Below, in pieces: positions 7,668 to 30,722 of a stretch of DNA of 52,375 bases (the first letter of the stretch is position 1; each line of letters begins with the position of its first letter). Source of the stretch: Candidatus Poseidonia sp. (lineage in GTDB: Archaea; Thermoplasmatota; Poseidoniia; Poseidoniales; Poseidoniaceae); NCBI GenBank assembly GCA_030827745.1, contig JAURDW010000005.1, positions 1-52,375 on the forward strand. Direction: 5' to 3'. Both the position numbers and the translations under genes were made by a program. The notes under the pieces were generated by a model. It worked only from the letters and a program-made list of their open reading frames with translations, made no database searches and had not been told where the DNA came from.

Positions 7668-8600
7668 ATGAAGCCAATCCTTCACTGGAGCCAAACCAAC
7701 GCTCGATTGTTGAACGCCTGCCCACGAGCATGGGTCAACACCTACGCAGCAAACCTCATGACGGGTTCAAGAGGGCCAGGTGCGCCCCGCAGCGGAACGC
7801 AACGTCGGCCCCAAATTGACGATGCTGTGGTCTCTGCCTTGCGGTCAACATGGACCGACCGGATGGAGGACCTCTTCGTCGGCACCGAATGGTCAAGTCC
7901 CTTCCGAGAACATCGTTTGAAGCGGCGGTTCACCGATGCGATGGACGCAAGCGGCCTCAAGGCTCCTGAAACCAATTTGACCCTGCATCTCAAACGTGGC
8001 GTCAACCAACTTGAGGCCCTCGAACGCACCGTTGGCCTGCGTCCATTGATGCGAGGTTCTGGTTCAAGGTGGGCCTATTTTGAGCGGTTGGACGGGGTCC
8101 ATGTTGACGGCGTCACGCTGTACACCGCCCCAGATTTGGCGTTTTATCATCAGCACAAGTGGACGTTGATACGGCTCCAATTCCGTTCCTCAGCGCACCA
8201 AACATTAGCCCAACAGTTGGAGCACTTGTTGATGGTGAAGTGGGCCATGGCTCAACCGGGTTTTCCAAACGAGGCGAACGCCTACCGGGTGAAGGTGATT
8301 CGGTGGCACCGCCACCGTTGGATTGAGCACCATCTTGACGTCAGCGAAACCCTGTTGGAACAAGCCGATGCCTTGGTTCAGCACGATGTTCAAGAGATGA
8401 AGTGGCTGCTTCGTTGTTGGAACAGCGATGCGGACCTCACAGCCGTCCCCTATGCCAGAGATGTGAAAACCTGCGAGTCATGTGCTTATCGGAAACGTTG
8501 TCCAGCAGGCCAAAATCTGGCCCAAGCCAAGGCGATGCAAGAACGGTTCGTGCTGAACTTGCATCAAAGAGAGGAAACCAAGTCACTGAGAACTTCGTGA
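7668..8600 (+). CDS. Degenerate RecB/Cas4-like PD-(D/E)XK family protein with Fe-S cysteines
   Basis: A 310-residue protein with the layout of Cas4/AddB-type nucleases. An early WSQTNARLLNACPRAW helix carries Cys18, a central strand has Asp156 (TAPDLAFY), and a C-terminal CESCAYRKRCP carries Cys269, Cys272 and Cys278. The four cysteines match the 4Fe-4S clasp of that family. The (D/E)xK active-site strand, however, reads IRLQFRS where active members have something like IVDIKS, so Asp becomes Gln and Lys becomes Arg, and catalysis is doubtful. It may bind DNA without cutting. Two paralogous proteins with intact motifs lie at 44856-48466. The 3' end overlaps the convergent tpiA by 37 bases. Confidence 0.65.
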   Translation: MKPILHWSQTNARLLNACPRAWVNTYAANLMTGSRGPGAPRSGTQRRPQIDDAVVSALRSTWTDRMEDLFVGTEWSSPFREHRLKRRFTDAMDASGLKAPETNLTLHLKRGVNQLEALERTVGLRPLMRGSGSRWAYFERLDGVHVDGVTLYTAPDLAFYHQHKWTLIRLQFRSSAHQTLAQQLEHLLMVKWAMAQPGFPNEANAYRVKVIRWHRHRWIEHHLDVSETLLEQADALVQHDVQEMKWLLRCWNSDADLTAVPYARDVKTCESCAYRKRCPAGQNLAQAKAMQERFVLNLHQREETKSLRTS

Positions 8601-17466: not shown

Positions 17467-18909
17467 TCAACGGCCAGGGGGGCCTCGTTTTGGACCCCCG
17501 GGTGGGCCGCCCTTCTTCGGACCGGGGGGACCGCCACCGGGCCCACCCTTCTTCGGGCCAGGAGGTCCGCCGCTCTTGCTCGGACCGGGAGGACCGCCAC
17601 CGGGGCCACCCTTCTTCGGGCCAGGAGGACCGCCCTTCTTTGGGCCGGGAGGACCGCCGGATTTCTTAGGGGCGGGGGGTCCTGAACGTTCTGACGCAGG
17701 GGCGGCGCTTGCGTCCTCCTCTTCGTCCTCAAACATGGCACCGCAGTGAGGACAGGTGGGGTCACTTTCTTTGACCAAACCATCGCAAATTTCGCACGCA
17801 AACATGTCTTCTTGGGGTTCGTCTTCCCCGATTTTCTCTGTGACGCCGTCCTTTGAACGGAACATGGTAACGCTTGGAGTAAGGTCGTAGCCTTTCAGAG
17901 CCATTTCAGTTTGGATGGCTTGTTCAAAAGCTTGGGTCAAATCTTCTGGTGTGTCCAAGACCCGACCGTCGTCGACATAGGTCACGTTGACCTCGAAGAC
18001 ATCTCCGTCCGATTTCGTTTGAGGGGCTTCGACCGCTACGCCTCGCTTTCGTGCAACTCGACGTACAGCCACCTCTGCAAGGCGACGGAGAAGCGCTTCG
18101 TTAGGGGCACCGTTGCTTTGCCCCCCGATGGTACCTGCCATAATGTCCGCTGCTGCATTGCCGGTTTCGTTTGCACCTGTCCGGAGGTGGGCGGGCAACT
18201 CACCGTTTCCGAGATTGGCGAGCACGGAAGAGGCTGGAGATTGGTTCATCGACAACCATTGGCTTCGACGCTCGTCTTTGACGGCCCGCTCGGCCTCAGC
18301 AAGCCGGTTCACCATGGCATCTGTAGGCGAGTTTGACGGATTTTGGGCGACTTTGGTCCCCCCAACTGGGAGGGGGGCAACGTTGCTTGTGTTCGGGACG
18401 GCGCCGCTAGCGATGGATGGTCCCCGATTGATATTGGGCATGTCGGTTAGCGGAGCCACATTGGACGTTGGAACTGCCGTATTGGGAGGTTGATGTGGCG
18501 GGAAGCCTTGTTGGGGTGGAAAGCCTTGCTGCGGTTGATAGGCCCCTGGGGGGATTTGTTGTGGCGGATAGGCTCCTTGCTGTGGTTGTTGGGGGGGGAA
18601 ACCGCCTTGAAGCGGTTGCTGCGGATAAGCACCTGGAGGAAGATTCTGCTGTTGATGAATTCCTTGAGCCATACCTTGGAGCATGTCTTGAGGAATTTGG
18701 CCAATTTGGTTCATGTTGGCTTCTTGCTGCATGCGTTGCTGCGGGTTCGAGACCGGGTCAAACGAACGTTGCTGTTGAGGGAATGGCGGGATATTTTGGG
18801 CAGGGGGCGGGGTAAACCCACCGGCGACTGAAGTGTCTTGCCGTGACCCACATTCGGGACAGAACATGCTGTCGGTTGGAATCAACTCACCGCATGCACC
18901 GCAGTTCAT
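17467..18909 (-). CDS. Zinc-ribbon protein with Gln/Pro-rich and Gly-Pro-Pro-Lys repeat regions
   Basis: A 480-residue protein of unusual make-up. ATG 18909 begins an N-terminal zinc ribbon (MNCGACGELIP...MFCPECGSRQ). Residues about 30-150 are Gln/Pro/Gly-rich (PPQQP, PQQG repeats). A folded middle part contains an alpha/beta segment around ARKRGVAVEAPQ to MFRSKDGVTEK. A second zinc ribbon (CEICDG...CPHCGAMF) follows, then an acidic stretch and a C-terminal tail of about 70 residues built from GPPGPKKGG units. The frame opens upstream at 19044, but the earlier part has no zinc-ribbon start. It precedes the helicase gene by 12 bases, which suggests a nucleic-acid-related role. No catalytic domain is recognised. 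Confidence 0.72.
   Translation of the reverse strand: MNCGACGELIPTDSMFCPECGSRQDTSVAGGFTPPPAQNIPPFPQQQRSFDPVSNPQQRMQQEANMNQIGQIPQDMLQGMAQGIHQQQNLPPGAYPQQPLQGGFPPQQPQQGAYPPQQIPPGAYQPQQGFPPQQGFPPHQPPNTAVPTSNVAPLTDMPNINRGPSIASGAVPNTSNVAPLPVGGTKVAQNPSNSPTDAMVNRLAEAERAVKDERRSQWLSMNQSPASSVLANLGNGELPAHLRTGANETGNAAADIMAGTIGGQSNGAPNEALLRRLAEVAVRRVARKRGVAVEAPQTKSDGDVFEVNVTYVDDGRVLDTPEDLTQAFEQAIQTEMALKGYDLTPSVTMFRSKDGVTEKIGEDEPQEDMFACEICDGLVKESDPTCPHCGAMFEDEEEDASAAPASERSGPPAPKKSGGPPGPKKGGPPGPKKGGPGGGPPGPSKSGGPPGPKKGGPGGGPPGPKKGGPPGGPKRGPPGR
17470..17680 (-). repeat. Imperfect tandem repeat encoding GPPGPKKGG units
   Basis: Read on the coding strand, a unit of about 27-45 bases coding GGPPGPKKGGP recurs at least five times, with GPGGG spacers. 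Copies are nearly identical at DNA level; for instance the bases coding PPGPKKGG recur almost unchanged near 17500, 17540, 17610 and 17640. The repeat is likely to vary in length by slippage. It is translated as the tail of the zinc-ribbon protein and is not a CRISPR array, since there are no spacers. Confidence 0.7.
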
Positions 18910-19070
18910 ATTCACGCCCCCGTAGAATGAGGTGATGCTACCCTTCCTAAAGGATTGCGACAAGATGCCCGCCTTGAGGACCAACAAATGCACGAGGGCC
19001 AACATCGGAACAAAGGGCACACATATCTTGATGCAGGAGGCCACGGTCCACCAACTGGAGGGGAGGCGAG

Positions 19071-21586: not shown

Positions 21587-24328
21587 TCAATCCTCTGAAT
21601 CAACGTACCAGTACTTCTTGTTGGGCGAAAGCGGCCGTTTCATCCAAAGAGGCCGTCGTTCACCGCGGGGATGGTGTTCCCGGTCCTTGGCCCACGAATT
21701 CCACTTTTTGTAATATTCAAACGATTTGTTCGTGTCCACCTCAACATCACCGTACTCTTCGCCCTCCTTCGGAAGCGATATCTTGACTTTTTGCAACCAA
21801 CAGTGCGCACCGCTGATCGGGTCGGGTTGCACGGCGTGAGTGATGTTCTGGTGGACGCCTCCATCTCGCCAAAACAAGCGGTTGGTGTCGGGATCTTCCG
21901 ACTCGAAGGGAACGATGCCTTCGACGGTTCGCATTCGCCACTTTCCTTCACCGCGGTCTTCGATCGAGACGGTGTTCGTCATCATCCGGTTGCCTGCATC
22001 TTGTTGGCGACGCCATCTCCCAATGTGATGAGAACAACCGACGATGCCCGGTTTGATGGCCTCGGTCACCCATACCTTGTCAATGAACCACCCTATCTCG
22101 GTCTCTATTTTCAACAATCCACCCTCCGTGACACCCAATTTTTCTGCATCGCTTGGATGGATCCAAATCGGATTTCGGTGCGCAATTTCCACCAGCCATT
22201 TCGCGTTGGCGGAACGGGAGTGGATGTGCATGGGCAGTCTGAAATTGGGCAGGAGACAGAACTCGTCCTCGCCTTGAAGGTTGTCCGGGTGAACATGCGA
22301 TTTTATTTTGTAATGGGGAATGGCGTGTTCGGGATATCCAAATTCGATCATGGTCGGAGAATAGAATTCTTGCTTCCCTGAGGGCGTCGGCCATCCTTCT
22401 TGTTCGTATTTTTTGTAGGTGCTCTCCTCAATCTGGTAAGCGCCGTGGCGTCGCATGTATTCCAATTCGCTCAAACCTTCTTCATTGGCCGTGTCTTTCA
22501 ATCCTGGAACCCGCTCAAAGATGTACTGATAGTAATCGTCAATGGACATTTTTTCCTCTGGTTTGTACGGCGACATGAAGTATTTCTTGATGCCCATGGA
22601 CCCGTCGGGGTCAATGCGATGGCTCAATTCATTCCAGAATTCGTCCTCCTCCCACACCTCGCCGGGATTGACCTCGTAGGTAAATTCAACCTCGTTGCCT
22701 TGACGGCGTTCGTACTCGCGCAGGACGGGTTGCCGGAAGGCCACCCATTTCCCGGACGATGTCGCGTAGGAATTGATGTCGTGGCGTTCGCTTGCGTGCC
22801 CCATTGGGAGAACGTAATCAGCAAAGAAAGCCGTTTCGTTCCATGTCGGGGTCATGGCGATGTGGCAGCCAACGGCCGCCTCATTTTGGAGCATCTCGAT
22901 CCATGAGAAACCGTCAGGGTAGGTCCAAACAGGGTTGAAAACACGCGTGAAGTAGACATCCATGGTGCCCCGCCCTTCCTTGACAAGGTGGGGTAAAATA
23001 TGGCTCATCTCAAAATGGGCAAGGGTGTACTCCGGAGGGAAATGCAACTCGTTCCAGCCTTCAGGAGCCGGTGGTTCGTTGGGGAGGTCCGGCTTGAACT
23101 TGGACCATGAATTCGGTGCCGTACCCCCCTTGGTCCCGACAGAACCGGTGAGCACATTCAGGAAGTGAAGGGTTCGGCTCACCTGCCAGCCACCGAGGTT
23201 TCCGATGGAGGCGGCCCGCCAAACGTGGCTTGACAATTCCGTTCCCGCATTGGCGACGATGTTCCCTGTTTCAATGACCTGTTCGACGGGAATGCGGCAT
23301 TCTTTTGCTGCAAACTCCGGCGTATACATGGCATATTCGTCTTTCAAGATGCGGATGAACATCTCAAATGTCCGCTCGACCTCGGGGTGAACGGCCTCAA
23401 GGTATTGCTCCCAATTCACTTGGGATTCCATGAATGGACGGTCGTAGAGATCTTGGTCAAGAATCATTTTGGCCCAAGCCAAGAACAAGGCTGGCTCGCT
23501 TCCTGGCCATGTCGGCAACCAGTGGTCTGCCATGGATGCGGTGTTGGACAACCTCGGGTCGACGACGAGAAGTTTGGCTCCGGCCATCATGCCTTCGAGG
23601 ATGCGTTGTGCATGCGGGTTGAAGTAGTGACCCGTTTCAAGATGGGACGAGCAAAGGAGAATCACCTTGGCATTGGTGTGGTCGGGGCTCGGCCGGTCGT
23701 GGTGATGCCAGAGGGCGTACCCTGTACGGGCACCGGCACTGCAGATGTTGGTGTGCGAGTTGTGGCCGTCAACGCCCCATGCCTTCAGCACACGGTTCGT
23801 GTAGCCCTCATGGCCTGGACGTCCGACGTGGTAAACCACTCGGTCGCGAGCACCGGTGTTCAGAGATGCACGGATTTTTCCGGCAATGTCGTCAAGGACT
23901 TCGTCCCATGTCACCTGCTCCCATTGCCCCTCACCACGCTTTCCGACCCGCTTGAGCGGGTGAAGAATGCGTTCAGTGTCGTTGATCTGGTTGATGGTCG
24001 CAGGTCCTTTTGCACAGTTTCGGCCTCTGCTTCCCGGGTGATGTGGGTTCCCCTCGAACCGGGCGACGTTGCCGGTGTCCTTGTCGACATAGGCGAGAAG
24101 ACCGCAAGCGGATTCGCAATTAAAACAGGTCGTTGGGACCAGAGAAAAGTTTCGCTTGACCTGTTTTGGCCAAGCTTGCGCATCAAGTTCGGTATGGTTG
24201 TCCCACTCCTCAATGCTGGGGTACTTTCGCAACGGCGAGGAGGCACCATCATGCCGCTCCTTGTCGATGTTGGGAATGAGGCGGAGTTTCTGGGCGATGT
24301 TTTCAATAAAGGTTCGTGCCATAATCAT
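21587..24328 (-). CDS. Molybdopterin oxidoreductase catalytic subunit, PsrA/PhsA/SoeA-like, no Tat signal
   Basis: A 913-residue member of the DMSO reductase (CISM) superfamily. The N-terminal 4Fe-4S motif is complete: Cys68, Cys71, Cys75 and Cys105 (CFNCESACG...NCAKG). The likely molybdenum ligand is Cys196 (SHTNICSAGAR), as in sulfur-compound and nitrate-type enzymes. Further on come LLVVDPR, HVWRAASIGN, LTGSVGTKGG, MGHASERHD and the C-terminal molydopterin-binding segment SHHIGRWRR. No twin-arginine signal is seen (start MIMARTFIENIAQKL), so it should work in the cytoplasm, like sulfite dehydrogenase SoeA and unlike exported PsrA/PhsA. It is encoded directly after the 4Fe-4S/NrfD fusion, its presumed electron partner. 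The substrate (sulfite, polysulfide or thiosulfate) is inferred only from the neighbours. Confidence 0.88.
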   Translation of the reverse strand: MIMARTFIENIAQKLRLIPNIDKERHDGASSPLRKYPSIEEWDNHTELDAQAWPKQVKRNFSLVPTTCFNCESACGLLAYVDKDTGNVARFEGNPHHPGSRGRNCAKGPATINQINDTERILHPLKRVGKRGEGQWEQVTWDEVLDDIAGKIRASLNTGARDRVVYHVGRPGHEGYTNRVLKAWGVDGHNSHTNICSAGARTGYALWHHHDRPSPDHTNAKVILLCSSHLETGHYFNPHAQRILEGMMAGAKLLVVDPRLSNTASMADHWLPTWPGSEPALFLAWAKMILDQDLYDRPFMESQVNWEQYLEAVHPEVERTFEMFIRILKDEYAMYTPEFAAKECRIPVEQVIETGNIVANAGTELSSHVWRAASIGNLGGWQVSRTLHFLNVLTGSVGTKGGTAPNSWSKFKPDLPNEPPAPEGWNELHFPPEYTLAHFEMSHILPHLVKEGRGTMDVYFTRVFNPVWTYPDGFSWIEMLQNEAAVGCHIAMTPTWNETAFFADYVLPMGHASERHDINSYATSSGKWVAFRQPVLREYERRQGNEVEFTYEVNPGEVWEEDEFWNELSHRIDPDGSMGIKKYFMSPYKPEEKMSIDDYYQYIFERVPGLKDTANEEGLSELEYMRRHGAYQIEESTYKKYEQEGWPTPSGKQEFYSPTMIEFGYPEHAIPHYKIKSHVHPDNLQGEDEFCLLPNFRLPMHIHSRSANAKWLVEIAHRNPIWIHPSDAEKLGVTEGGLLKIETEIGWFIDKVWVTEAIKPGIVGCSHHIGRWRRQQDAGNRMMTNTVSIEDRGEGKWRMRTVEGIVPFESEDPDTNRLFWRDGGVHQNITHAVQPDPISGAHCWLQKVKISLPKEGEEYGDVEVDTNKSFEYYKKWNSWAKDREHHPRGERRPLWMKRPLSPNKKYWYVDSED

Positions 24329-24331
24329 CCC

Positions 24332-25759
24332 TCACAAAAGCGGCTCAAGTTGCGGTTTCTCGATGACGTGGTGACCGTGGCGCAAAATCACCAGCAGGGC
24401 CACAGCCCCGACGAGAATGGGAGCCACGCCGCCGCTTACGAGCAGGCCGTGAAGCACCGCAAGGGTGGCCCCCCCGATGGCAGCGGTCTCAACCAAAAAC
24501 TTCGCAGGAAGCCAACCGTCCCTTGACCACGAGCGCCCTTTCGCTTGTTGGAGAAGCCATGCGGTGTAGACACCGGTCAGGGCGGCGATGGGGATGCCTG
24601 CGTAGGCCATGTATTCGAGGTAGAGGAGGTAATCCGTTGGTTTGAAGAGGACCAAGACCGCACTGAGAAAGAGAATGCCTCCGTAGGCTGCGAGGATGTA
24701 GGCACCCTTCACAAGCCATGAATTCCAATTTGGACGAAGCATCACGTAGAGGAACCGTTCGGGGCGGTCCAAGTCCATGATGAGCAGCACACCGGTGATG
24801 GCGAGAAAGCCCAAGCCGACACCGGTCACGGGCAGCCAGAGGTCCGTCATGTCGAGTTGACCGCTAAGCCACAGCATCATGGCGACCATATAGGTGCCGG
24901 CTGCGATGCCCTTTGTCCATATGTAAGCACTTACTTCCCAACCCCACAGAATGCCCTTCGAAGGTGCATCGTACGCCCGCTTGGCCTCGGATGAGGTGTC
25001 GGCAAGTTTGGCTGCAACGTCGCGGATGATGGCTTGGTCCCGAGGATTCGCTTCCTTGGCTTTGAGGTCGAGTGCAAGTTGGACAATCATGGAATGTTCG
25101 TCAGCTGCGCCGAGGCGTTCTTGGGCGTACTTGGCGTAATGCCCGACGCCCGCCGCCTGTTCGCTCCACATGCCGGCTGCAGGTTTGTCGGTGGCCAAGG
25201 GGTTAAGCATCTCGTCGGAAGTGTCGAGGTAATACACGTTCGGTACGGTTCCAGATTCGGGTTTGCGAACTTTGGTGTCGTGTTCGGCAATCAATTGCGA
25301 CAGGCTGGAGTTGGGGTCGTCCAGATCACCGCTCACGATGGCTTCAACGGGGCATACAATGACGCAGGCTGGCTCGTAAGAATTCTCAATTCGGTGGGCG
25401 CAGTAATTGCATTTTGCAGCCGTACCTGTGTTGGGGTTGATGTAGAGGGCGTCGTAAGGGCAAGCCTGCATGCATGATTTGCATCCAATGCAGCGGTCGT
25501 CGTCGAAATCCACAATGCCGTCGGAGCGGGTGAAAAGAGCGGTTGTTGGGCAAATGGTGGTGCAGGGAGCGTCTTCGCAGTGGTTGCATCGGTGAACACT
25601 GAACTCTCGGTTTGAATCCGGGTAGGTTCCCGTTTCGATGTATTTGACGTGCGTACGGTTCACACCGACCGGAACGTCGTGCTCTGACTTGCACGCCACC
25701 GTGCAGGCATGACACCCAATGCACTTTCTGTTGTCAATTGCAAATCCAAAATTTACCAT
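24332..25759 (-). CDS. Fused 4Fe-4S ferredoxin-type and NrfD-like membrane subunit
   Basis: A 475-residue fusion of the electron-transfer (PsrB/SoeB) and membrane (PsrC/SoeC, NrfD) subunits that are usually separate proteins. The first 185 residues hold four Cys clusters for up to four 4Fe-4S centres: KCIGCHACTVACK, CNHCEDAPCTTICP, RCIGCKSCMQACP and CNYC...ACVIVCP. A polar linker of about 80 residues leads to roughly six transmembrane helices from about residue 268 (GILWGWEVSAYIWTKG onward), ending HGHHVIEKPQLEPLL. It should carry electrons between the molybdoenzyme and membrane quinone. Gene order (upstream of the catalytic gene by three bases) supports a complex. No Tat signal is present, placing the Fe-S part in the cytoplasm. 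Confidence 0.88.
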   Translation of the reverse strand: MVNFGFAIDNRKCIGCHACTVACKSEHDVPVGVNRTHVKYIETGTYPDSNREFSVHRCNHCEDAPCTTICPTTALFTRSDGIVDFDDDRCIGCKSCMQACPYDALYINPNTGTAAKCNYCAHRIENSYEPACVIVCPVEAIVSGDLDDPNSSLSQLIAEHDTKVRKPESGTVPNVYYLDTSDEMLNPLATDKPAAGMWSEQAAGVGHYAKYAQERLGAADEHSMIVQLALDLKAKEANPRDQAIIRDVAAKLADTSSEAKRAYDAPSKGILWGWEVSAYIWTKGIAAGTYMVAMMLWLSGQLDMTDLWLPVTGVGLGFLAITGVLLIMDLDRPERFLYVMLRPNWNSWLVKGAYILAAYGGILFLSAVLVLFKPTDYLLYLEYMAYAGIPIAALTGVYTAWLLQQAKGRSWSRDGWLPAKFLVETAAIGGATLAVLHGLLVSGGVAPILVGAVALLVILRHGHHVIEKPQLEPLL

Positions 25760-25771
25760 ATGTTCACGTCC

Positions 25772-26914
25772 TTATCCTTGAGAAGCTGCGCATTGGTTTT
25801 TGCCGAGGTCCAATTCCTCTGCTGTAGCAGCATCCACCTCATCAAGATGAGCGTTCACCTTGCGAATTCGATCGTATGTTTCCGGCTGAGGCCGCATGTG
25901 TTCCTCAACCCATGAGACAAAGGCTTGCTCTGATTCCAAGCCGTAGATGCTCTCGTTGAGAGCTTTGACGGTGCCGAAATCGTTCATGATGAGGTACGCA
26001 TCATCGGCCTCACGAGCCCAATCCGTGTAATGGCCGGGCAGGACCGCAAGGGATTCAGGGAGAACACAAATGCGCTGTTTGAGAGTGATGTAGAGTTGCT
26101 TGGCCCATTCCACGACCTTTTTTCCGAGGTCAGGCCGACCAACAGAGACGATGAAGACCGTATCGCCAGAGATCATGTAACGGTCGTCCAAGACATAGGT
26201 CGTCGAACCCGGTGTGTGGCCGGGAGAATGGGTGCAGAGAACCGAGGGCCCTGCTGCGCCAGAGAAACCGATTCGCTCACCGTCCACCACGGGCCTGTAG
26301 GTGATGTTTGATGTGGCGAAGTCGCCATCGTGAGCGAGGTAGTCAACGCCGCACGCTTCGGCGAGGGATGGGCCGCCCGAGATGTAATCCGCTTGGAGGT
26401 GGGTTTCAAACACCGACACGATGCGCCATTGACGGTCTTCAGCGAAACGCTGGTAAAACGAAACATCTTTGCTGACGTCAAAGAACATGACTTCGCCGTT
26501 GTATGCGAAGCCGTAAGAGCAGGAGGCTTTTCCAGGCCGATTGAACTGCCACACTTCGTAATGCTCAGGCGAGGGAATTTGTTTCGCCACCAAGAGGTTC
26601 CCCCAAGAGACGATGCCGTTGGCTAACCATTGGACATCCGCGAAGCCAAACTCTTCAAGCATGTCGGAAATGAATTGTGCCGAACCTTCTTTCGCACAAA
26701 TGACCCGTATGGACCGAGAATCGTCCAACTTTTCCGTGGATTCTTCGGGCATTTCCAGAAAATCGAAATACGGAATGTTCAGCATCTCAATGTTGTTTGG
26801 CCCCTCAACGTGGAAACGAGCGAAATCATCCTCGTTTCGGACGTCCAAGTAGAGGTGTCCAATGCCCTCTTCAATCCACCCGTACATGTCGGCGGCAGTG
26901 AAGCTCTTCGACAC
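25772..26914 (-). CDS. Rhodanese-metallo-beta-lactamase fusion, persulfide dioxygenase-like
   Basis: A 380-residue protein. Residues 1-115 form a rhodanese domain (LYLDVRNEDDFARFHVEGP) with Cys73 in the active loop CAKEGSA. Residues about 120-300 are a metallo-beta-lactamase fold related to ETHE1/CstB: THLQADYISGG, THSPGHTPGS, YMISGDTVFIVSVGRPDLG, VLPGHYTDW. The usual HxHxDH motif is changed to H172-x-Q174-x-D176-Y177, yet the three residues matching the mononuclear iron ligands of human ETHE1 (His79, His135, Asp154) are kept as His172, His233 and Asp251. The domain order is the reverse of CstB. The expected role is oxidation of persulfide to sulfite, with the rhodanese moving sulfane sulfur. 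The last 80 residues are helical. Confidence 0.85.
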   Translation of the reverse strand: MSKSFTAADMYGWIEEGIGHLYLDVRNEDDFARFHVEGPNNIEMLNIPYFDFLEMPEESTEKLDDSRSIRVICAKEGSAQFISDMLEEFGFADVQWLANGIVSWGNLLVAKQIPSPEHYEVWQFNRPGKASCSYGFAYNGEVMFFDVSKDVSFYQRFAEDRQWRIVSVFETHLQADYISGGPSLAEACGVDYLAHDGDFATSNITYRPVVDGERIGFSGAAGPSVLCTHSPGHTPGSTTYVLDDRYMISGDTVFIVSVGRPDLGKKVVEWAKQLYITLKQRICVLPESLAVLPGHYTDWAREADDAYLIMNDFGTVKALNESIYGLESEQAFVSWVEEHMRPQPETYDRIRKVNAHLDEVDAATAEELDLGKNQCAASQG

Positions 26915-26923
26915 ACGTCCACC

Positions 26924-27427
26924 TCACATCATGAGTTGGATGTCGGCTTCGGCGGCGAAGTCAAGGAAGGCCGCAGCGCCGGCAAAATTCACGCCCTCGA
27001 TGAAGTCCTTTTCCTCAAAGCCAAACACATCCATGGTCATCTGGCAGGCGATGAGGTCAACACCCAACGCCAAGCACATCTCACGAAGTTCCGTGACCGT
27101 GGCAACGCCTTTGTTCTTGAATTGCTTTTTCATGAGCGAAGTCGCCATGGAGTCAAAACCAGGAATGAATCCACTCACAGCGTGCGGAATGGGCCAATCA
27201 ATGGCTTGGAAGGCCTTCGGACCAAAGGGCATCTTCATCGGCATGGCGGGGTTGGCAGCTGGGGTAACTTTCGCTGAAATCTTGTGTTTCAAGAGCGGAA
27301 GGCCGTAAAAAGTGAAGAAGATTTTGACCTCCATGTCCATGGCTGCCGCCGTCGAGGCGAGGATGAAGGGAGGGTAAGCCCAGTCAAGACTGCCTTGAGC
27401 AGCGATGATCGCCATCTTTTTGCCCAT
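26924..27427 (-). CDS. DsrE/DsrF-like sulfur-relay family protein
   Basis: A 167-residue protein of the DsrE2/DsrE3-like family, cytosolic or membrane-associated sulfur-transfer proteins. The start MGKKMAIIAAQGSLDWAYPPFILASTAAAMDMEV and the segment FFTFYGLPLL are characteristic, and a conserved Cys sits in LIACQMTMDVFG, the position used to hold persulfide in relatives. ATG 27427 falls one base past the tusA stop; the longer open frame (to 27484) overlaps tusA and is discarded. Together with TusA and the rhodanese it makes a persulfide relay. The partner is inferred from gene order. Confidence 0.87.
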   Translation of the reverse strand: MGKKMAIIAAQGSLDWAYPPFILASTAAAMDMEVKIFFTFYGLPLLKHKISAKVTPAANPAMPMKMPFGPKAFQAIDWPIPHAVSGFIPGFDSMATSLMKKQFKNKGVATVTELREMCLALGVDLIACQMTMDVFGFEEKDFIEGVNFAGAAAFLDFAAEADIQLMM

Positions 27428-27428
27428 T

Positions 27429-27659
27429 TCAATCCCCTCGCTTAACGAGGAAGTAGTACTTCCCGTTCTCTTCAGCTTCCTCAATCATCTCGTGACCGAC
27501 GCGATTGGCCCATGCGGGAATGTCCTTGCATGAACCTGGGTCGGTCGTAATGATCTTCAGCACCTCGCCAGGGCTCATCGTGTCAATCTTCATTTTGGAC
27601 TTTACCACCGGCAAAGGGCAACTCATTCCACTGCAGTCAATTTCGTCGTTATGGCTCAT
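27429..27659 (-). CDS. tusA: TusA-family sulfur carrier protein
   Basis: A 76-residue carrier that holds sulfur as a persulfide on the Cys of its CPxP motif: DCSGMSCPLPVVKSKMKI, with Cys14 as the reactive residue and an extra Cys9. GEVLKIITTDPGS and the ENGKYYFLVKR strand complete the family pattern. It is sandwiched between the ArsR regulator (4-base ATGA overlap) and the DsrE-like gene, so it belongs to the sulfur operon and not to a tRNA-thiolation context. Confidence 0.92.
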   Translation of the reverse strand: MSHNDEIDCSGMSCPLPVVKSKMKIDTMSPGEVLKIITTDPGSCKDIPAWANRVGHEMIEEAEENGKYYFLVKRGD

Positions 27660-28015
27660 GTTTTTTCCTCCATTCGCATGCTTTGGGTTTCTTCGAGGCA
27701 GGAAAGCATCTTCATCACCAGCGGGCTTCCCACGCTGTAAATCACGCTTTGACCGTCTCGCTCTGCACGGACGATGCCGAGGTGATACATCTGCCTCAAG
27801 TGTTGTGAAGTCACGGGCTGTGACAAGCCGATTTCTGCTTGAATCGCTTTGACCTTCATCTCACCGCTACGCAACAATTCAACGATGCGAAGCCGGTCAG
27901 GATGGCCCAAGCATTTGATCACCTTCGAGACGTCGCTGACGAACTGAGCGTCAAGGACGAAGGACGGCGCCGGAACCTGCTTCTCCACGGCGAGAAAGTG
28001 ATACAACAAATACAT
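27656..28015 (-). CDS. ArsR-family winged-helix regulator of the sulfur operon
   Basis: A 119-residue ArsR/SmtB-type repressor: helix-turn-helix core IQAEIGLSQPVTSQHLRQMYHLGIV and wing AERDGQSVIYSVGS. It has only two cysteines, Cys35 (VIKCLGHPDR) and Cys105 (MLSCLEE), and lacks metal-site motifs such as ELCVCDL. A two-Cys arrangement is how the persulfide sensors SqrR/BigR work, although Cys35 is not at exactly their first position. It is the first gene of the operon and so probably autoregulated. ATG 28015 lies 26 bases from a TATA-like box, fitting leaderless expression; GTG 27988 is an alternative start. Confidence 0.88.
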   Translation of the reverse strand: MYLLYHFLAVEKQVPAPSFVLDAQFVSDVSKVIKCLGHPDRLRIVELLRSGEMKVKAIQAEIGLSQPVTSQHLRQMYHLGIVRAERDGQSVIYSVGSPLVMKMLSCLEETQSMRMEEKT

Positions 28016-28021
28016 TAACTT

Positions 28022-28045
28022 ATTTGCATAAATGAATGTTTTACC
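28022..28045 (-). promoter_or_regulatory. Probable TATA box and A/T-rich dyad ahead of the sulfur operon
   Basis: On the minus strand, GGTAAAACA (28037-28045) is centred about 26 bases before the ATG at 28015, the distance expected for a leaderless archaeal promoter. Between it and the start lies the dyad ATTT-N4-AAAT (28022-28033). ArsR repressors typically bind such A/T-rich dyads, and a protein bound here would block polymerase loading. Position and symmetry are seen; function is inferred. Confidence 0.45.
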
Positions 28046-28113
28046 GGAGCCTTACCGATTCCCCAAAAAAATGAGGACTTCCAGACCACGACGAAGGCCC
28101 GTTCAGCCTCGCA

Positions 28114-28938
28114 TCACGCAAAGATCGAACCGATGTCCATGAGGTATTTCACGAGCACCACGCCGACCAACAACATAAACACGCGAAGGATGTTTTCCGA
28201 TGAAATGTAGCGCATCCCGAACTGAGCGCCCAACTTTGCTCCAAAGTAGGTCAAGAGCGGCAACGACAACAAAAACACGGCATTGGAACGGAGGGTCTGC
28301 CAGTCGCTGGCCTCAATAAACACAAGATGTGTAAGGATGGCCACGGGCACAACGACCATCATCAGATGAAGACTTGAGCCGATGGCTTTTCGAGTCGGCA
28401 ATTGGGCGTATTGTTGCAAGACGGGGACATAAATGACACCTGCTCCAATGGCTAGGATGGAAGAGAGCATGCCCCCGATTCCGGTACCGATACGCAACGG
28501 AAGATGGTGAAGAGGGAGCGGCTCCGATGCCTCACCGACGGATTTTGCGGCCGCAAGGGCTTTTTTCCCGAGCTTTTTGGCGGTTTTTCTCAACGACCAA
28601 ACCAACATCAGCGCACTCAACGACTTGAAAATCAGGTCGAAATCATCACCCAATTGAATGACGATAGCCACCCCGAGCAGGGCAGCAGGGACGGCGCCGA
28701 CCAAACCCGACTTCACGGCCTCATCGTTGACATGGCCTTCTTTCCTGTGAGCCAGTCCGCTGCCGTAACTCACGACGCAAGTCAGGGTCAAGGACACGGC
28801 AAACAAGGCGCCATCGATTTCCCAACCCCCGACGTAATGCAACAGCGGCACGAAAAGGAGACCCCCTCCCATGCCAACGGGTGCAAACATAAAGGCGATG
28901 AAAAACACACCGAGAGCAAGAAGGATTTGGTCGTACAT
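28114..28938 (-). CDS. TauE/SafE-family anion exporter
   Basis: A 274-residue membrane protein with eight or so helices and the twofold pattern of the TauE/SafE (DUF81) family: FAPVGMGGGLLFVPLLHYVGG in the first half and IGTGIGGMLSSILAIGAGVIYVPVLQ in the second. Members export sulfite, sulfoacetate or related anions. It is upstream of the ArsR gene on the same strand with about 100 bases between, in which the operon promoter lies, so it is probably a separate transcript of the same regulon. Removal of sulfite or sulfate is the likely job here, by context. Confidence 0.85.
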   Translation of the reverse strand: MYDQILLALGVFFIAFMFAPVGMGGGLLFVPLLHYVGGWEIDGALFAVSLTLTCVVSYGSGLAHRKEGHVNDEAVKSGLVGAVPAALLGVAIVIQLGDDFDLIFKSLSALMLVWSLRKTAKKLGKKALAAAKSVGEASEPLPLHHLPLRIGTGIGGMLSSILAIGAGVIYVPVLQQYAQLPTRKAIGSSLHLMMVVVPVAILTHLVFIEASDWQTLRSNAVFLLSLPLLTYFGAKLGAQFGMRYISSENILRVFMLLVGVVLVKYLMDIGSIFA

Positions 28939-29058: not shown

Positions 29059-29520
29059 TCAAAGCTTCGTTGATGCATCGTCAAGCGCCAAGGGCCGCAC
29101 CGGATGAGCCAACCACGACGGGTCGTTTTTCCAGTCAAAGGAAGGGACATCAACGTACACCTCAACCTCGTTACCGTCGGGGTCGAGCATGTACACCGAA
29201 TGTGAAATGCCGTGGTCGCTTTGACCGACCACCTTTGCACCAACGGCCATGCAACGGGCCTTCGCAGCCACAAGTTCAGCGTCGTCGCTCCCAATGCACC
29301 AACCGGTGTGGTACAACCCGATTCGGTGGCCAGCCAGGGGACCGGGTGCATCGCCTACTTCGAGAAGGAGGAGTTCGTGATGGGTGCGCCCCCCGCTCAG
29401 AGCGGTGGCTCTTCCTCCGAACGTTGTCCCGACAACTTCCAAACCGACCACGCGTGTATAGAATTCCACCATCGGGGGCATGGAGCGGACATAGAGCACA
29501 TAATGGCCCAATTCAACCAT
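29059..29520 (-). CDS. VOC-superfamily (glyoxalase/extradiol dioxygenase-like) protein
   Basis: A 153-residue vicinal-oxygen-chelate protein. The beta-alpha-beta-beta-beta start LGHYVLYVRSMPPMVEFYTRVVGLEV is followed by a candidate metal His in HHELLLLEV, then SDHGISHSVYMLDPDGNEVEVYVD, which resembles catechol 2,3-dioxygenase-like members. The second metal Glu would be in NEVEVY. ATG 29520 fits the family start; a TTG at 29550 would instead overlap the acyl-CoA dehydrogenase stop. It is on the same strand as and directly downstream of that gene. Substrate unknown. Confidence 0.8.
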   Translation of the reverse strand: MVELGHYVLYVRSMPPMVEFYTRVVGLEVVGTTFGGRATALSGGRTHHELLLLEVGDAPGPLAGHRIGLYHTGWCIGSDDAELVAAKARCMAVGAKVVGQSDHGISHSVYMLDPDGNEVEVYVDVPSFDWKNDPSWLAHPVRPLALDDASTKL

Positions 29521-29546
29521 GTGCACCCCTCTCAAATGAACCCCGT

Positions 29547-30722
29547 TCAAACATTTCGCGTGAAAGCCTGAATGCCGGTGATGTAGCGACCAAGAATCAA
29601 ATTGTGAATGTCGTGGGTGCCTTCGTATGTTTTTACCGACTCAAGGTTGGCCATGTGACGCATGATGGGGTATTCATCGAGTACGCCGTTTGCCCCGTGG
29701 ATGTCGCGAGCAACTCGAGCGATCTCGAGGGCGATGTCGACGTTGTTCATCTTCGCCAAGGAGATTTGCTCGGGGAACCAGGTCCCCTCGTCTTTTTTGC
29801 GCCCCAAATGGTAGGCCAGCAATTGGCCTTTGGTGATTTCTCGCAGCATCCATGCAAGTTTGTTCTGCACCAGTTGGTAGGACGCAATGGGGTGGTCAAA
29901 TTGAATGCGAGAAAGGGCATAGGTCTTGGCGCTGTGGAAACAGGCCATCGCTGAACCTAAGGCACCCCAAGAGATGCCGTACCGTGCGTTGTTCAAGCAG
30001 GAGAACGGTCCGCGAAGCCCCTTGACGCCAGGAAGCATTCGGTCTTTGGGAATCTTGCAGTCTTGGAACACCAACTCGCTGGTCACGCTGGCTTTGAGCG
30101 AGTGCTTGCCCTTCATCTCAGGAGCGGTGAAGCCCTCATCGCCCTTTTCCACAATGAAGCCACGAATAATGCCGTCCAATTTCGCCCAAACCACGGCCAC
30201 ATCGGCGATGGTCCCGTTGGTGATCCACATTTTTGCACCGTTGAGAAGATAGTGGTCGCCCTTGTCCTCTGCTTTGGTGACCATGTCACCAGGATTTGAC
30301 CCATAATCCGGCTCGGTGAGGCCGAAGCAACCCACCCATTCGCCCGAAGCCATTTTCGGAAGGTACGTTTCTTTTTGTTGTTCAGAGCCAAAATCCCAGA
30401 TGGGATACATGGCCAGCGAACCTTGGACCGAGGCGAAGGACCGAAGGCCGCTGTCACCTCGCTCCAATTCTTGACAAATCAAGCCGTAGGCAACATAGGA
30501 AAGTCCGGGGCAGCCGTAGCCTTTCAGAGGCGCACCGAGTACGCCCATTTCCCCGAGGGCCACGCGCCACTCATCGAGAAAAACACCTTCCTCGCAGGCC
30601 TGTTCAATCTTGGGAATTACCGCTTCATCAACCCACTCGCGAACCATGTCCCGTATCATCCGCTCTTCCTCTGTAAGGAGGCTTTCAATGTCGTAAAAGT
30701 CCAGGCCTTCAAACGGTTCCAT
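29547..30722 (-). CDS. gcdH: Glutaryl-CoA dehydrogenase
   Basis: FAD enzyme that oxidises and decarboxylates glutaryl-CoA to crotonyl-CoA in lysine and tryptophan breakdown, passing electrons to ETF. The 391-residue product matches human GCDH closely: GVLGAPLKGYGCPG, YGLICQELERGDSG, then the Arg in SGLRSFASVQGS that contacts the glutaryl carboxylate in GCDH, CFGLTEPDYGSNP, WITNGTIADVAVVWA, GPFSCLNNARYGISWG, and the catalytic Glu367 in KTYEGTHDIHNLILGR. It is followed by the VOC gene and lies about 4 kb from etfBA, its likely electron acceptor. Confidence 0.93.
   Translation of the reverse strand: MEPFEGLDFYDIESLLTEEERMIRDMVREWVDEAVIPKIEQACEEGVFLDEWRVALGEMGVLGAPLKGYGCPGLSYVAYGLICQELERGDSGLRSFASVQGSLAMYPIWDFGSEQQKETYLPKMASGEWVGCFGLTEPDYGSNPGDMVTKAEDKGDHYLLNGAKMWITNGTIADVAVVWAKLDGIIRGFIVEKGDEGFTAPEMKGKHSLKASVTSELVFQDCKIPKDRMLPGVKGLRGPFSCLNNARYGISWGALGSAMACFHSAKTYALSRIQFDHPIASYQLVQNKLAWMLREITKGQLLAYHLGRKKDEGTWFPEQISLAKMNNVDIALEIARVARDIHGANGVLDEYPIMRHMANLESVKTYEGTHDIHNLILGRYITGIQAFTRNV

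What the first reader, a model, noticed from the sequence alone, without database searches (positions are those of the whole stretch)
21587..28938. A compact sulfur-metabolism cassette: ArsR, TusA, DsrE, rhodanese-dioxygenase, FeS-NrfD fusion, Mo enzyme, TauE
Six genes run head to tail with gaps of at most 12 bases or overlaps (28015 down to 21587), with a TauE/SafE exporter just upstream. Each gene belongs to a family known in sulfane-sulfur or sulfite handling. Inference: persulfide carried on TusA/DsrE is oxidised to sulfite by the rhodanese-MBL protein. The cytoplasmic molybdoenzyme then oxidises sulfite to sulfate with electrons going to quinone through NrfD, while TauE exports the product and ArsR senses persulfide. 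The reverse, sulfur-compound reduction, cannot be excluded. The complete set in an apparently aerobic planktonic archaeon would be a little-described lithoheterotrophic trait.
Basis: partly seen in the sequence, partly recalled or inferred. Interest (0 to 1): 0.78.

Follow-up and report, generated by a model that had tools for sequence, protein, structure and literature searches.

The report
Swappable archaeal sulfur-oxidation gene cassette
Some ocean-dwelling Marine Group II archaea carry an accessory block of genes that looks built to oxidise reduced sulfur, and in close relatives one gene of the block is replaced, in the same place, by a whole other sulfur-oxidising machine, which points to what the block does.

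Summary
The six genes and TauE are present as described in a Poseidonia-like Marine Group II (MGII) genome. The oxidative reading is partly supported, with two corrections.

(1) The FeS-NrfD fusion and molybdoenzyme are the core: 52 of 193 sampled order members have the Mo gene, 17 of those 52 also DsrE2. The 18 DsrE2 genomes carry either Rhd-MBL (16) or sHdr (2), never both. In MGIIb loci the slot between TraB and FeS-NrfD is empty, or holds ArsR-TusA-DsrE2-RhdMBL, or ArsR-TusA-DsrE2-LbpA-sHdr(type II)-EtfBA. sHdr forms sulfite, so the swap supports sulfane sulfur to sulfite to sulfate.

(2) 'Dioxygenase' is doubtful: MGII copies covering the motif read HLQADY (46 of 46 rows); seven outside relatives read HxHADH.

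The Mo subunit forms its own clade, apart from PsrA/PhsA, TtrA, ArrA and formate/nitrate enzymes, without a twin-arginine signal. SoeA could not be tested. At the window's site, 15 of 15 congeners examined lack the block and have its flanking genes as neighbours. All reactions are inferred.

The parts
27656..28015 (-). ArsR/SmtB-family regulator, first gene of the run
   Evidence: Pfam HTH_5 48.2 bits; NCBIfam metalloregulator subfamily over cut-off, BigR and TsoR models far under theirs; C106 conserved in 9 of 9 aligned copies, C35 in 3 of 9
27429..27659 (-). TusA-like sulfur carrier with CPxP motif
   Evidence: Pfam TusA 87.1 bits; alignment of 7 copies
26924..27484 (-). DsrE2-type sulfur carrier; likely start at 27427
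   Evidence: Pfam DrsE_2 162 bits; NCBIfam SulfCarrDsrE2 206.3 bits against a cut-off of 210; start
25772..26914 (-). Rhodanese - metallo-beta-lactamase protein with conserved C-terminal Cys tail (GKNQCAAS); YrkH-like; metal motif altered to HLQADY
   Evidence: Pfam Rhodanese and Lactamase_B; motif table; relatives with HxHADH; Foldseek top rows 3r2u, 3tp9, 5ve4, 4chl
24332..25759 (-). FeS protein (16 Cys in the first 200 residues) fused to a short NrfD-type membrane anchor
   Evidence: Pfam Fer4_11 and NrfD; Cys count; only NrfD match in the own genome
21587..24328 (-). Molybdopterin oxidoreductase catalytic subunit (Cys in HTNICS, no twin-arginine signal seen)
   Evidence: Pfam three domains; tree and Cys position; N-termini
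28114..28938 (-). TauE/SafE family transporter, upstream of ArsR, inside the inserted block
   Evidence: Pfam TauE 91.2 bits; block limits
29059..29550 (-). Glyoxalase-fold gene at the far edge of the inserted block; not known to take part
   Evidence: Pfam Glyoxalase; no match at E 1e-10 in the 15 congener stretches

Best explanation
An accessory cassette for oxidising sulfane sulfur in the cytoplasm, inserted between a squalene/phytoene-synthase-like gene and an acyl-CoA dehydrogenase gene. SHOWN: gene content and order; linkage across genomes; one operon slot that is empty, Rhd-MBL-filled or sHdr-filled; no twin-arginine signal; a conserved Cys at the Mo-ligand position; an altered MBL metal motif. 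INFERRED: TusA and DsrE2 carry persulfide sulfur; the Rhd-MBL protein (in relatives, sHdr) turns it towards sulfite; the Mo/FeS/NrfD complex oxidises sulfite to sulfate and passes two electrons to quinone; TauE moves excess sulfite (or sulfate) out; ArsR represses until reactive sulfur appears. In Mo-positive MGII without carriers the Mo complex would handle sulfite from other sources.
For: DsrE2 occurs in 18 of 193 genomes (one, G034, a fragment); 17 have the Mo gene, against 52 of 193 overall (Fisher p = 3e-10, not corrected for relatedness), and the eighteenth (G035) is cut at a contig end. Strong Rhd-MBL (16; the next match is 1.5e-12) and strong sHdrB1 (2; the next is 7.4e-7) never co-occur and together cover all 18. 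Same slot in MGIIb; in genus g19, G078 has Rhd-MBL and G046 sHdr, and their Mo genes fall together with support 0.999. The L145 block meets the published definition of a type II sHdr cluster (definition in passages); its HdrA matches PDB 6tjr better than methanogen HdrA. In another family of the class (G195) two radical-SAM genes and a lipoate ligase follow Mo. No twin-arginine signal in the clade. The six gene types are together in Rhodococcus jostii RHA1; rhodanese-MBL and TauE lie beside the pair in two haloarchaea. TauE follows Mo in 18 of 51 loci.
Against: No activity, transcript or chemistry was examined. The Rhd-MBL motif change argues against a plain dioxygenase step. 35 of 52 Mo-positive genomes have no DsrE2 match, so the Mo complex is not tied to the carriers. 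Neomarinimicrobiota L038 has ArsR-TusA-DsrE2 and the pair but no Rhd-MBL and no sHdr core genes in the stretch, only a 38-residue match to the last, membrane gene of the sHdr block. Two other haloarchaeal loci (L089, L094), L047 and Thermomicrobium have the pair with neither Rhd-MBL nor carriers matched in the stretch. The sHdr locus L144 does not show folP/traB in the stretch fetched, so its slot is not proven. SoeA was not available. Best PDB matches are to Thermus thiosulfate/polysulfide reductase subunits. No ATP-sulfurylase or sulfite reductase domain was found in the own genome, 81.5% complete, which proves nothing.
Confidence: 0.6

Rival explanations
1. Detoxification rather than energy: the cassette is an archaeal counterpart of the Bacillus yrk and Staphylococcus cst persulfide-stress operons, with a sulfite-disposing Mo complex added; electrons to quinone are incidental.
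For: Rhd-MBL relatives sit in two Bacillales plasmid clusters with DsrE/DrsE_2-like genes, TusA, MBL, TusA, TauE. In B. licheniformis the yrkE-ydfQ deletion mutant was more sensitive to cysteine, sulfide and sulfane sulfur (PMC9918477, passages). Patchy distribution: 4 of 21 sampled genus members, own genome included.
Against: Swap with the large, lipoate-dependent sHdr-EtfBA module, which looks like an energy pathway. The Mo gene occurs without DsrE2 in 35 of 52 genomes.
Confidence: 0.35
2. The MGII Rhd-MBL protein is not an oxidase: it is a sulfurtransferase or docking hub (rhodanese Cys plus C-terminal Cys arm), and the Mo complex takes sulfane sulfur from the carriers itself or with a thiol intermediate.
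For: HLQADY in 46 of 46 rows covering the motif (rows repeat genomes), at 47-100% overall identity; rhodanese Cys and tail Cys unchanged in every row covering them and in the 8-sequence alignment.
Against: The motif is invariant, not decaying, and His/Asp of the other metal positions (PGHTPG, GDT) are kept, so a metal may still bind. The protein trades places with sHdr, which makes sulfite.
Confidence: 0.3
3. Reductive direction: a polysulfide, thiosulfate or sulfur reductase used in low oxygen.
For: Best PDB sequence matches are 2vpw_A (thiosulfate reductase; Thermus PsrA by recall) and 2vpw_B; NCBIfam ranks PhsA first, at 182 bits against a cut-off of 694. SAR406 genes have been read as phsA (PMC5596340, passages; whether they are L038-like was not checked).
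Against: Outside the PsrA+PhsA clade, no twin-arginine signal, close relatives in hosts recalled as aerobes, and the neighbouring module is sHdr or Rhd-MBL.
Confidence: 0.12
4. The Mo complex acts on a non-sulfur substrate and the carriers are for thiolation or cofactor supply.
For: 35 of 52 Mo-positive genomes lack DsrE2; function of the clade is unmeasured; Mrp/NBP35 or MobA genes follow Mo in Rhodococcus and haloarchaea.
Against: TauE or sulfur carriers beside it in many MGII loci, two haloarchaea and Rhodococcus; the tree separates it from the arsenate, formate and nitrate enzymes tested.
Confidence: 0.05

Closest known systems
Rhodococcus jostii RHA1 pRHL3 cluster (ArsR, Rhd-MBL, DsrE2, TusA, FeS-NrfD, Mo, Mrp)
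   Same: All six gene types together; Mo 53.6% identical; FeS-NrfD fused
   Different: Rhd-MBL and ArsR genes on the opposite strand; metal motif HVHADH; Mrp/NBP35 and two DUF202 genes added; no TauE listed in the 18.8 kb stretch
SoeABC sulfite:quinone oxidoreductase
   Same: Mo subunit without twin-arginine signal, FeS subunit, membrane anchor (SoeABC features recalled)
   Different: FeS and anchor fused here; no SoeA sequence was available, so kinship is untested
Bacillus yrkEFHIJ and Staphylococcus cst operons
   Same: DsrE-type and TusA carriers, rhodanese-MBL protein, TauE
   Different: CsoR/CstR-type regulator there, ArsR here; no Mo complex in the stretches read; metal motif intact in the two Bacillales copies aligned
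Type II sHdr-LbpA system
   Same: Follows the same ArsR-TusA-DsrE2 head and precedes the same FeS-NrfD-Mo pair in L144 and L145
   Different: Absent from the window; the own genome has only a 22% identity match to sHdrB1
Thermus PsrABC / enterobacterial PhsABC
   Same: Same superfamily and subunit types; best PDB match
   Different: Twin-arginine signal in PhsA, none seen here; separate clades

Membership tests
SoeABC | Mo-bisMGD subunit with N-terminal Fe4S4 domain | tested here: met
   Pfam Molybdop_Fe4S4, Molybdopterin, Molydop_binding; the cofactor itself is inferred
SoeABC | No Tat signal, cytoplasmic | tested here: met
   N-termini of window and clade lack a twin-arginine motif; PhsA, TtrA, DmsA, FdnG, NapA and Azoarcus have it, FdhF lacks it too; read by eye, no signal predictor was run
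SoeABC | Groups with characterised SoeA | not testable with these tools
   No named SoeA sequence could be obtained
SoeABC | Sulfite:quinone activity | not testable with these tools
   needs protein
PsrABC/PhsABC | Mo subunit inside the PsrA+PhsA clade | tested here: not met
   PsrA+PhsA UFBoot 93; the branch that sets the MGII clade apart has 100
PsrABC/PhsABC | Exported by Tat | tested here: not met
   by eye
Persulfide dioxygenase (ETHE1/CstB/YrkH) | MBL fold of the PDO type | tested here: met
   Foldseek top rows 3r2u and 3tp9 (CstB-like by recall), 5ve4, 4chl (model pLDDT 71.5)
Persulfide dioxygenase (ETHE1/CstB/YrkH) | 2-His-1-Asp iron site | tested here: not met
   HLQADY for HxHADH; ETHE1 ligand numbering is recalled, the aligned ETHE1 row is, the motif table. 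Metal content untested
Type II sHdr (L145, L144, G195 loci, not the window) | shdrC1B1AHB3 and etfAB in one syntenic cluster | tested here: met
   definition from PMC11582611, passages
Type II sHdr | Present in the window or its genome | tested here: not met
   only a 22% match in G000 (genome 81.5% complete)
cst/yrk operon | CsoR-type regulator (CstR/YrkD) | tested here: not met
   ArsR family instead
BigR/SqrR-type dithiol sensor | Two conserved Cys | tested here: not met
   Cys 106 in 9 of 9, Cys 35 in 3 of 9; the two-Cys rule is recalled

The most novel reading that the evidence does not exclude
The MGII Rhd-MBL protein is a persulfide dioxygenase that has been rebuilt: with HLQADY in place of the iron motif and a conserved C-terminal Cys arm, it makes sulfite (or a sulfonate-type carrier adduct) without the standard non-haem iron site, in effect a one-gene substitute for the ten-kilobase sHdr-LbpA-EtfBA machine that occupies the same slot in sister genomes; and some of the ocean's commonest archaea are facultative sulfur oxidisers.
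Probability: 0.2. Interest if true: 0.82.

Novelty: new variant of a known kind. Interest (0 to 1): 0.63.

Why it matters
MGII archaea are regarded as photo- and chemoheterotrophs; one genome study, read in passages, reports no predicted sulfur respiration genes in its MGII genomes (PMC5596340). If the cassette works as inferred, a widespread planktonic archaeal order would have an accessory sulfane-sulfur and sulfite oxidation trait that comes and goes as a block. The one-gene versus ten-kilobase swap in a single operon slot is a natural experiment: it says two unrelated enzymes may do the same step, which is testable, and it questions automatic 'dioxygenase' and 'polysulfide reductase' labels for these genes.

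Tried and rejected
AlphaFold of the Mo subunit gave pLDDT 52 and was not used further. The Rhd-MBL model has its motif residues 173-178 under pLDDT 50, so site geometry could not be judged. Searching the phyla of L047 and L038 failed because the tool needs a genome handle; plasmid records gave the outside relatives instead. Considered and dropped: an arsenate or formate enzyme (tree); a plain glycine-cleavage H protein for the LbpA of L145 and L144 (both have an N-terminal Cys and a C-terminal ECIHCEG; two such Cys are described for LbpA in PMC6067878, passages; against this, NCBIfam and PDB searches name GcvH first).

Literature: searches of the open-access library (capped listings) and the passages that I read of 13 papers showed no description of this cassette or of sHdr in Poseidoniales. 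No paper was read whole. Supplements were not readable, and the archaeal sHdr table of PMC10332631 was not seen and may hold it.
Full report
WHAT IS THERE. The seven ORFs are real, at the stated places and strand, with Pfam matches above the curated cut-offs and gaps of 98, -4, -56, 9, 12 and 3 bases from TauE to Mo. The DsrE2 ORF probably starts at the internal Met codon at 27427. The window lies in a 1.74 Mb, 117-contig genome, 81.5% complete. Its nearest named Mo relatives are MAGs called Poseidonia sp. (92-93% identity), that is, Marine Group II (MGII).

WHAT IS CONSERVED. The Mo subunit finds 56 loci in one scan of named genomes: 54 carry titles naming Poseidonia, Poseidoniaceae, Poseidoniales, Thalassarchaeum, Thalassarchaeaceae, Marine Group II, Thermoplasmatota or just Euryarchaeota, one is a Neomarinimicrobiota (L038, 67%) and one a Pirellulales (L047, 57%). 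The FeS-NrfD fusion lies before it in 51 of 56; four of the other five start inside Mo at a contig end and one holds a remnant. In a 193-genome sample of the order, 61 have a match at E <= 1e-3: 52 strong (E <= 1e-20, some only fragments at contig ends), G185 with a broken copy, and eight with weak matches that I take for other molybdoenzymes. DsrE2 is in 18, one of them (G034) only as a fragment. Rhd-MBL gives matches in 170 genomes at E <= 1e-3, but only 16 are strong (3.2e-60 or better; the next is 1.5e-12, general MBL proteins). Seventeen of the 18 DsrE2 genomes have Mo; the other, G035, ends its contig inside Rhd-MBL. Fisher p = 3e-10, not corrected for relatedness. In 14 of the 16 Rhd-MBL genomes that gene and Mo share a contig, about 1.5 kb apart; the other two, G116 and G035, are cut by contig ends. 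In 26 of the 56 named loci traB stands directly before FeS-NrfD; of 51 loci with an ORF after Mo, TauE comes next in 18, a DUF2061 gene lies within three ORFs in 27 (both in 4), and neither in 10 (families; two of those ten, L003 and L005, have TauE upstream).

THE SWAP. Two DsrE2 genomes lack Rhd-MBL, G046 and G117. In both, between DsrE2 and FeS-NrfD, lies a block of about 10 kb: a GcvH-like lipoyl protein, HdrC, HdrB, a short HdrA, a protein without family, a fused HdrC/HdrB, EtfB, EtfA and a hydrophobic Fer4-CCG protein. This matches the published definition of a type II sHdr cluster, shdrC1B1AHB3 with etfAB in one cluster (PMC11582611, passages). HdrA of L145 matches PDB 6tjr over residues 4-348 of 353 (E 3.6e-85), ahead of the methanogen enzyme (that 6tjr is the Hyphomicrobium sHdrA is recalled). 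HdrB1 has matches in 38 of the 193 genomes at E <= 1e-3, strong only in those two (the next is 7.4e-7). Rhd-MBL and sHdr are therefore mutually exclusive and jointly cover all 18. After folP-traB the slot holds nothing (L010, L015, L173, L174), the Rhd-MBL set (L008, L014, L151-L154; in L151 and L152 a TauE gene on the other strand lies in between) or the sHdr set (L145), before the same pair; folP-traB is not in the fetched stretch of L144, L149 and L150. G046 (sHdr) and G078 (Rhd-MBL) share a genus, and their Mo genes fall together with support 0.999 in a tree of 61 loci that includes duplicates of the same genomes; on it the carrier set changes state at least 6 times. Of 292 genomes of the phylum sampled, 27 have Mo at E <= 1e-100, 26 of them in the order; the other is G195 (same class, 97% complete). 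Its operon reads TusA, DsrE2, an ArsR match, a second DsrE-like ORF (weak), LbpA, HdrC1, HdrB1, HdrA, Hyp, HdrB3, EtfB, EtfA, Fer4-CCG protein, FeS-NrfD, Mo, two radical-SAM genes and a lipoate ligase fused to DUF116; the last three resemble the lipoate maturation set described beside bacterial sHdr (PMC10332631, passages). sHdr is reported to form sulfite from sulfane sulfur (PMC6067878 and PMC10332631, passages). This is the best evidence for direction. In L038, the gap between DsrE2 and FeS-NrfD holds no Rhd-MBL and no sHdr core gene, only a 38-residue match (55%, E 6e-8) to the Fer4-CCG protein, perhaps a remnant.

THE RHD-MBL PROTEIN. Foldseek on its model (pLDDT 71.5) ranks 3r2u and 3tp9 (MBL and rhodanese proteins; CstB-like by recall), then a persulfide dioxygenase-rhodanese fusion and human ETHE1. 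By sequence (28-38%) it goes with proteins of Bacillales (L177, L178), haloarchaea (L087, L088, L179, L180) and Rhodococcus (L090) that share an N-terminal rhodanese, the MBL domain and a C-terminal G-x-N-x-C-A tail. All seven of these have THxHADH; 348 plasmid records match the protein and only a few were read. Of the MGII rows that cover the motif, 46 of 46 (many repeat a genome) have THLQADY, at overall identities of 47-100%; the other metal positions and the rhodanese and tail Cys are kept wherever covered. ETHE1's first iron ligand (H79, recalled) aligns with the Gln (alignment). Uniform replacement with everything else kept suggests altered chemistry rather than decay, but does not rule out iron or oxygen chemistry.

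THE MO COMPLEX. A tree of 33 sequences over 355 columns (LG+F+R4, model not tested) sets the MGII, L038, L047, haloarchaeal, Rhodococcus and Thermomicrobium proteins apart with UFBoot 100. Azoarcus is next, then TtrA, ArrA, PsrA+PhsA (93), DmsA, formate and nitrate enzymes; branches among these are partly weak. The references include four fragments from PDB alignments; the Sulfurovum fragment did not cover the region and fell out. The clade has the HTN[IV]CS Cys and no twin-arginine signal, whereas PhsA, TtrA, DmsA, FdnG, NapA and Azoarcus have one and FdhF does not. Outside MGII the pair lies beside rhodanese-MBL and TauE in two haloarchaea, with neither Rhd-MBL nor carriers matched in two others (L089, L094), in L047 and in Thermomicrobium, and with DsrE2, TusA, Rhd-MBL and ArsR in Rhodococcus. 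One NrfD match, no ATP-sulfurylase and no sulfite reductase domain were found in the window's own genome.

A MOVING BLOCK. In the genus, 4 of 21 sampled members, own genome included, have the Mo gene. Fifteen congeners were examined at this site, of 24 with the flanking synthase-like gene and no known cassette; ten of the 15 were in the sample and have no strong Mo match, five were not searched for it. In 15 of 15 the synthase-like gene and the acyl-CoA dehydrogenase gene are neighbours, 80 to about 1,620 bases apart, and TauE, the glyoxalase gene and the cassette genes give no match in the stretch (one stretch is cut inside the dehydrogenase gene, and the longer spacers were not read). The inserted block in the window is thus about 8 kb, from Mo to the glyoxalase gene. 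Loss in most of the genus is less simple but not excluded.

VERDICT. The cassette is best read as an accessory sulfane-sulfur and sulfite oxidation unit. Support comes from the swap, the linkage, the missing export signal and the neighbours; all reactions are inferred. The dioxygenase step is the weakest, SoeA kinship is untested, and detoxification versus energy cannot be told apart here.

Noticed in passing
L038 6949-8262: Neomarinimicrobiota locus has ArsR-TusA-DsrE2 and FeS-NrfD-Mo but no Rhd-MBL or sHdr core between them, only a short match to the membrane Fer4-CCG gene at 7908-8021. SAR406 genes called phsA in earlier work may be of this kind (not checked).
   Followed up: partly
L018 12727-12939 and 13013-13276: Small DUF2061 membrane proteins lie within three ORFs after Mo in 27 of 51 MGII and related loci; function unknown.
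   Followed up: partly
window 24332-25759 and relatives: The FeS-NrfD fusion is shorter in MGII (475 aa in the window and L145) than in Rhodococcus, Thermomicrobium, Natrinema, L038 and L047 (506-591 aa), with fewer hydrophobic peaks in a crude plot.
   Followed up: no
L002 3143-4009, L004 5319-6185, L009 1653-3140: A lipoprotein-like gene sits between Mo and the synthase-like gene in two Poseidonia loci; a BNR-repeat lipoprotein precedes FeS-NrfD in L009 and some others.
   Followed up: no
L008/L153 (G034) 7278-7346 in L008: DsrE2 appears truncated in an otherwise complete cassette.
   Followed up: no
L142, L143: MGII genomes carry other molybdoenzymes (open frames of 909 and 777 aa); the first groups with FdhF in the tree.
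   Followed up: partly
L093 (Azoarcus KH32C): Neighbouring Mo family with a twin-arginine signal, TorD, a phosphonate-type binding protein and a sensor kinase beside it; substrate unknown.
   Followed up: no
L181 (Acidithiobacillus ferrooxidans plasmid): A lone protein 50.5% identical to the MGII HdrB1 sits near a GcvH-like gene without other hdr genes in the stretch.
   Followed up: no
window genome G000: No sulfite reductase domain (PF01077) was found, although assimilatory sulfite reduction is reported as core in MGII (PMC6336850, passages); the genome is 81.5% complete.
   Followed up: partly
window 17467-19044: Zinc-ribbon-like protein with a long Pro/Gly/Lys repeat tail (read by eye).
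   Followed up: no
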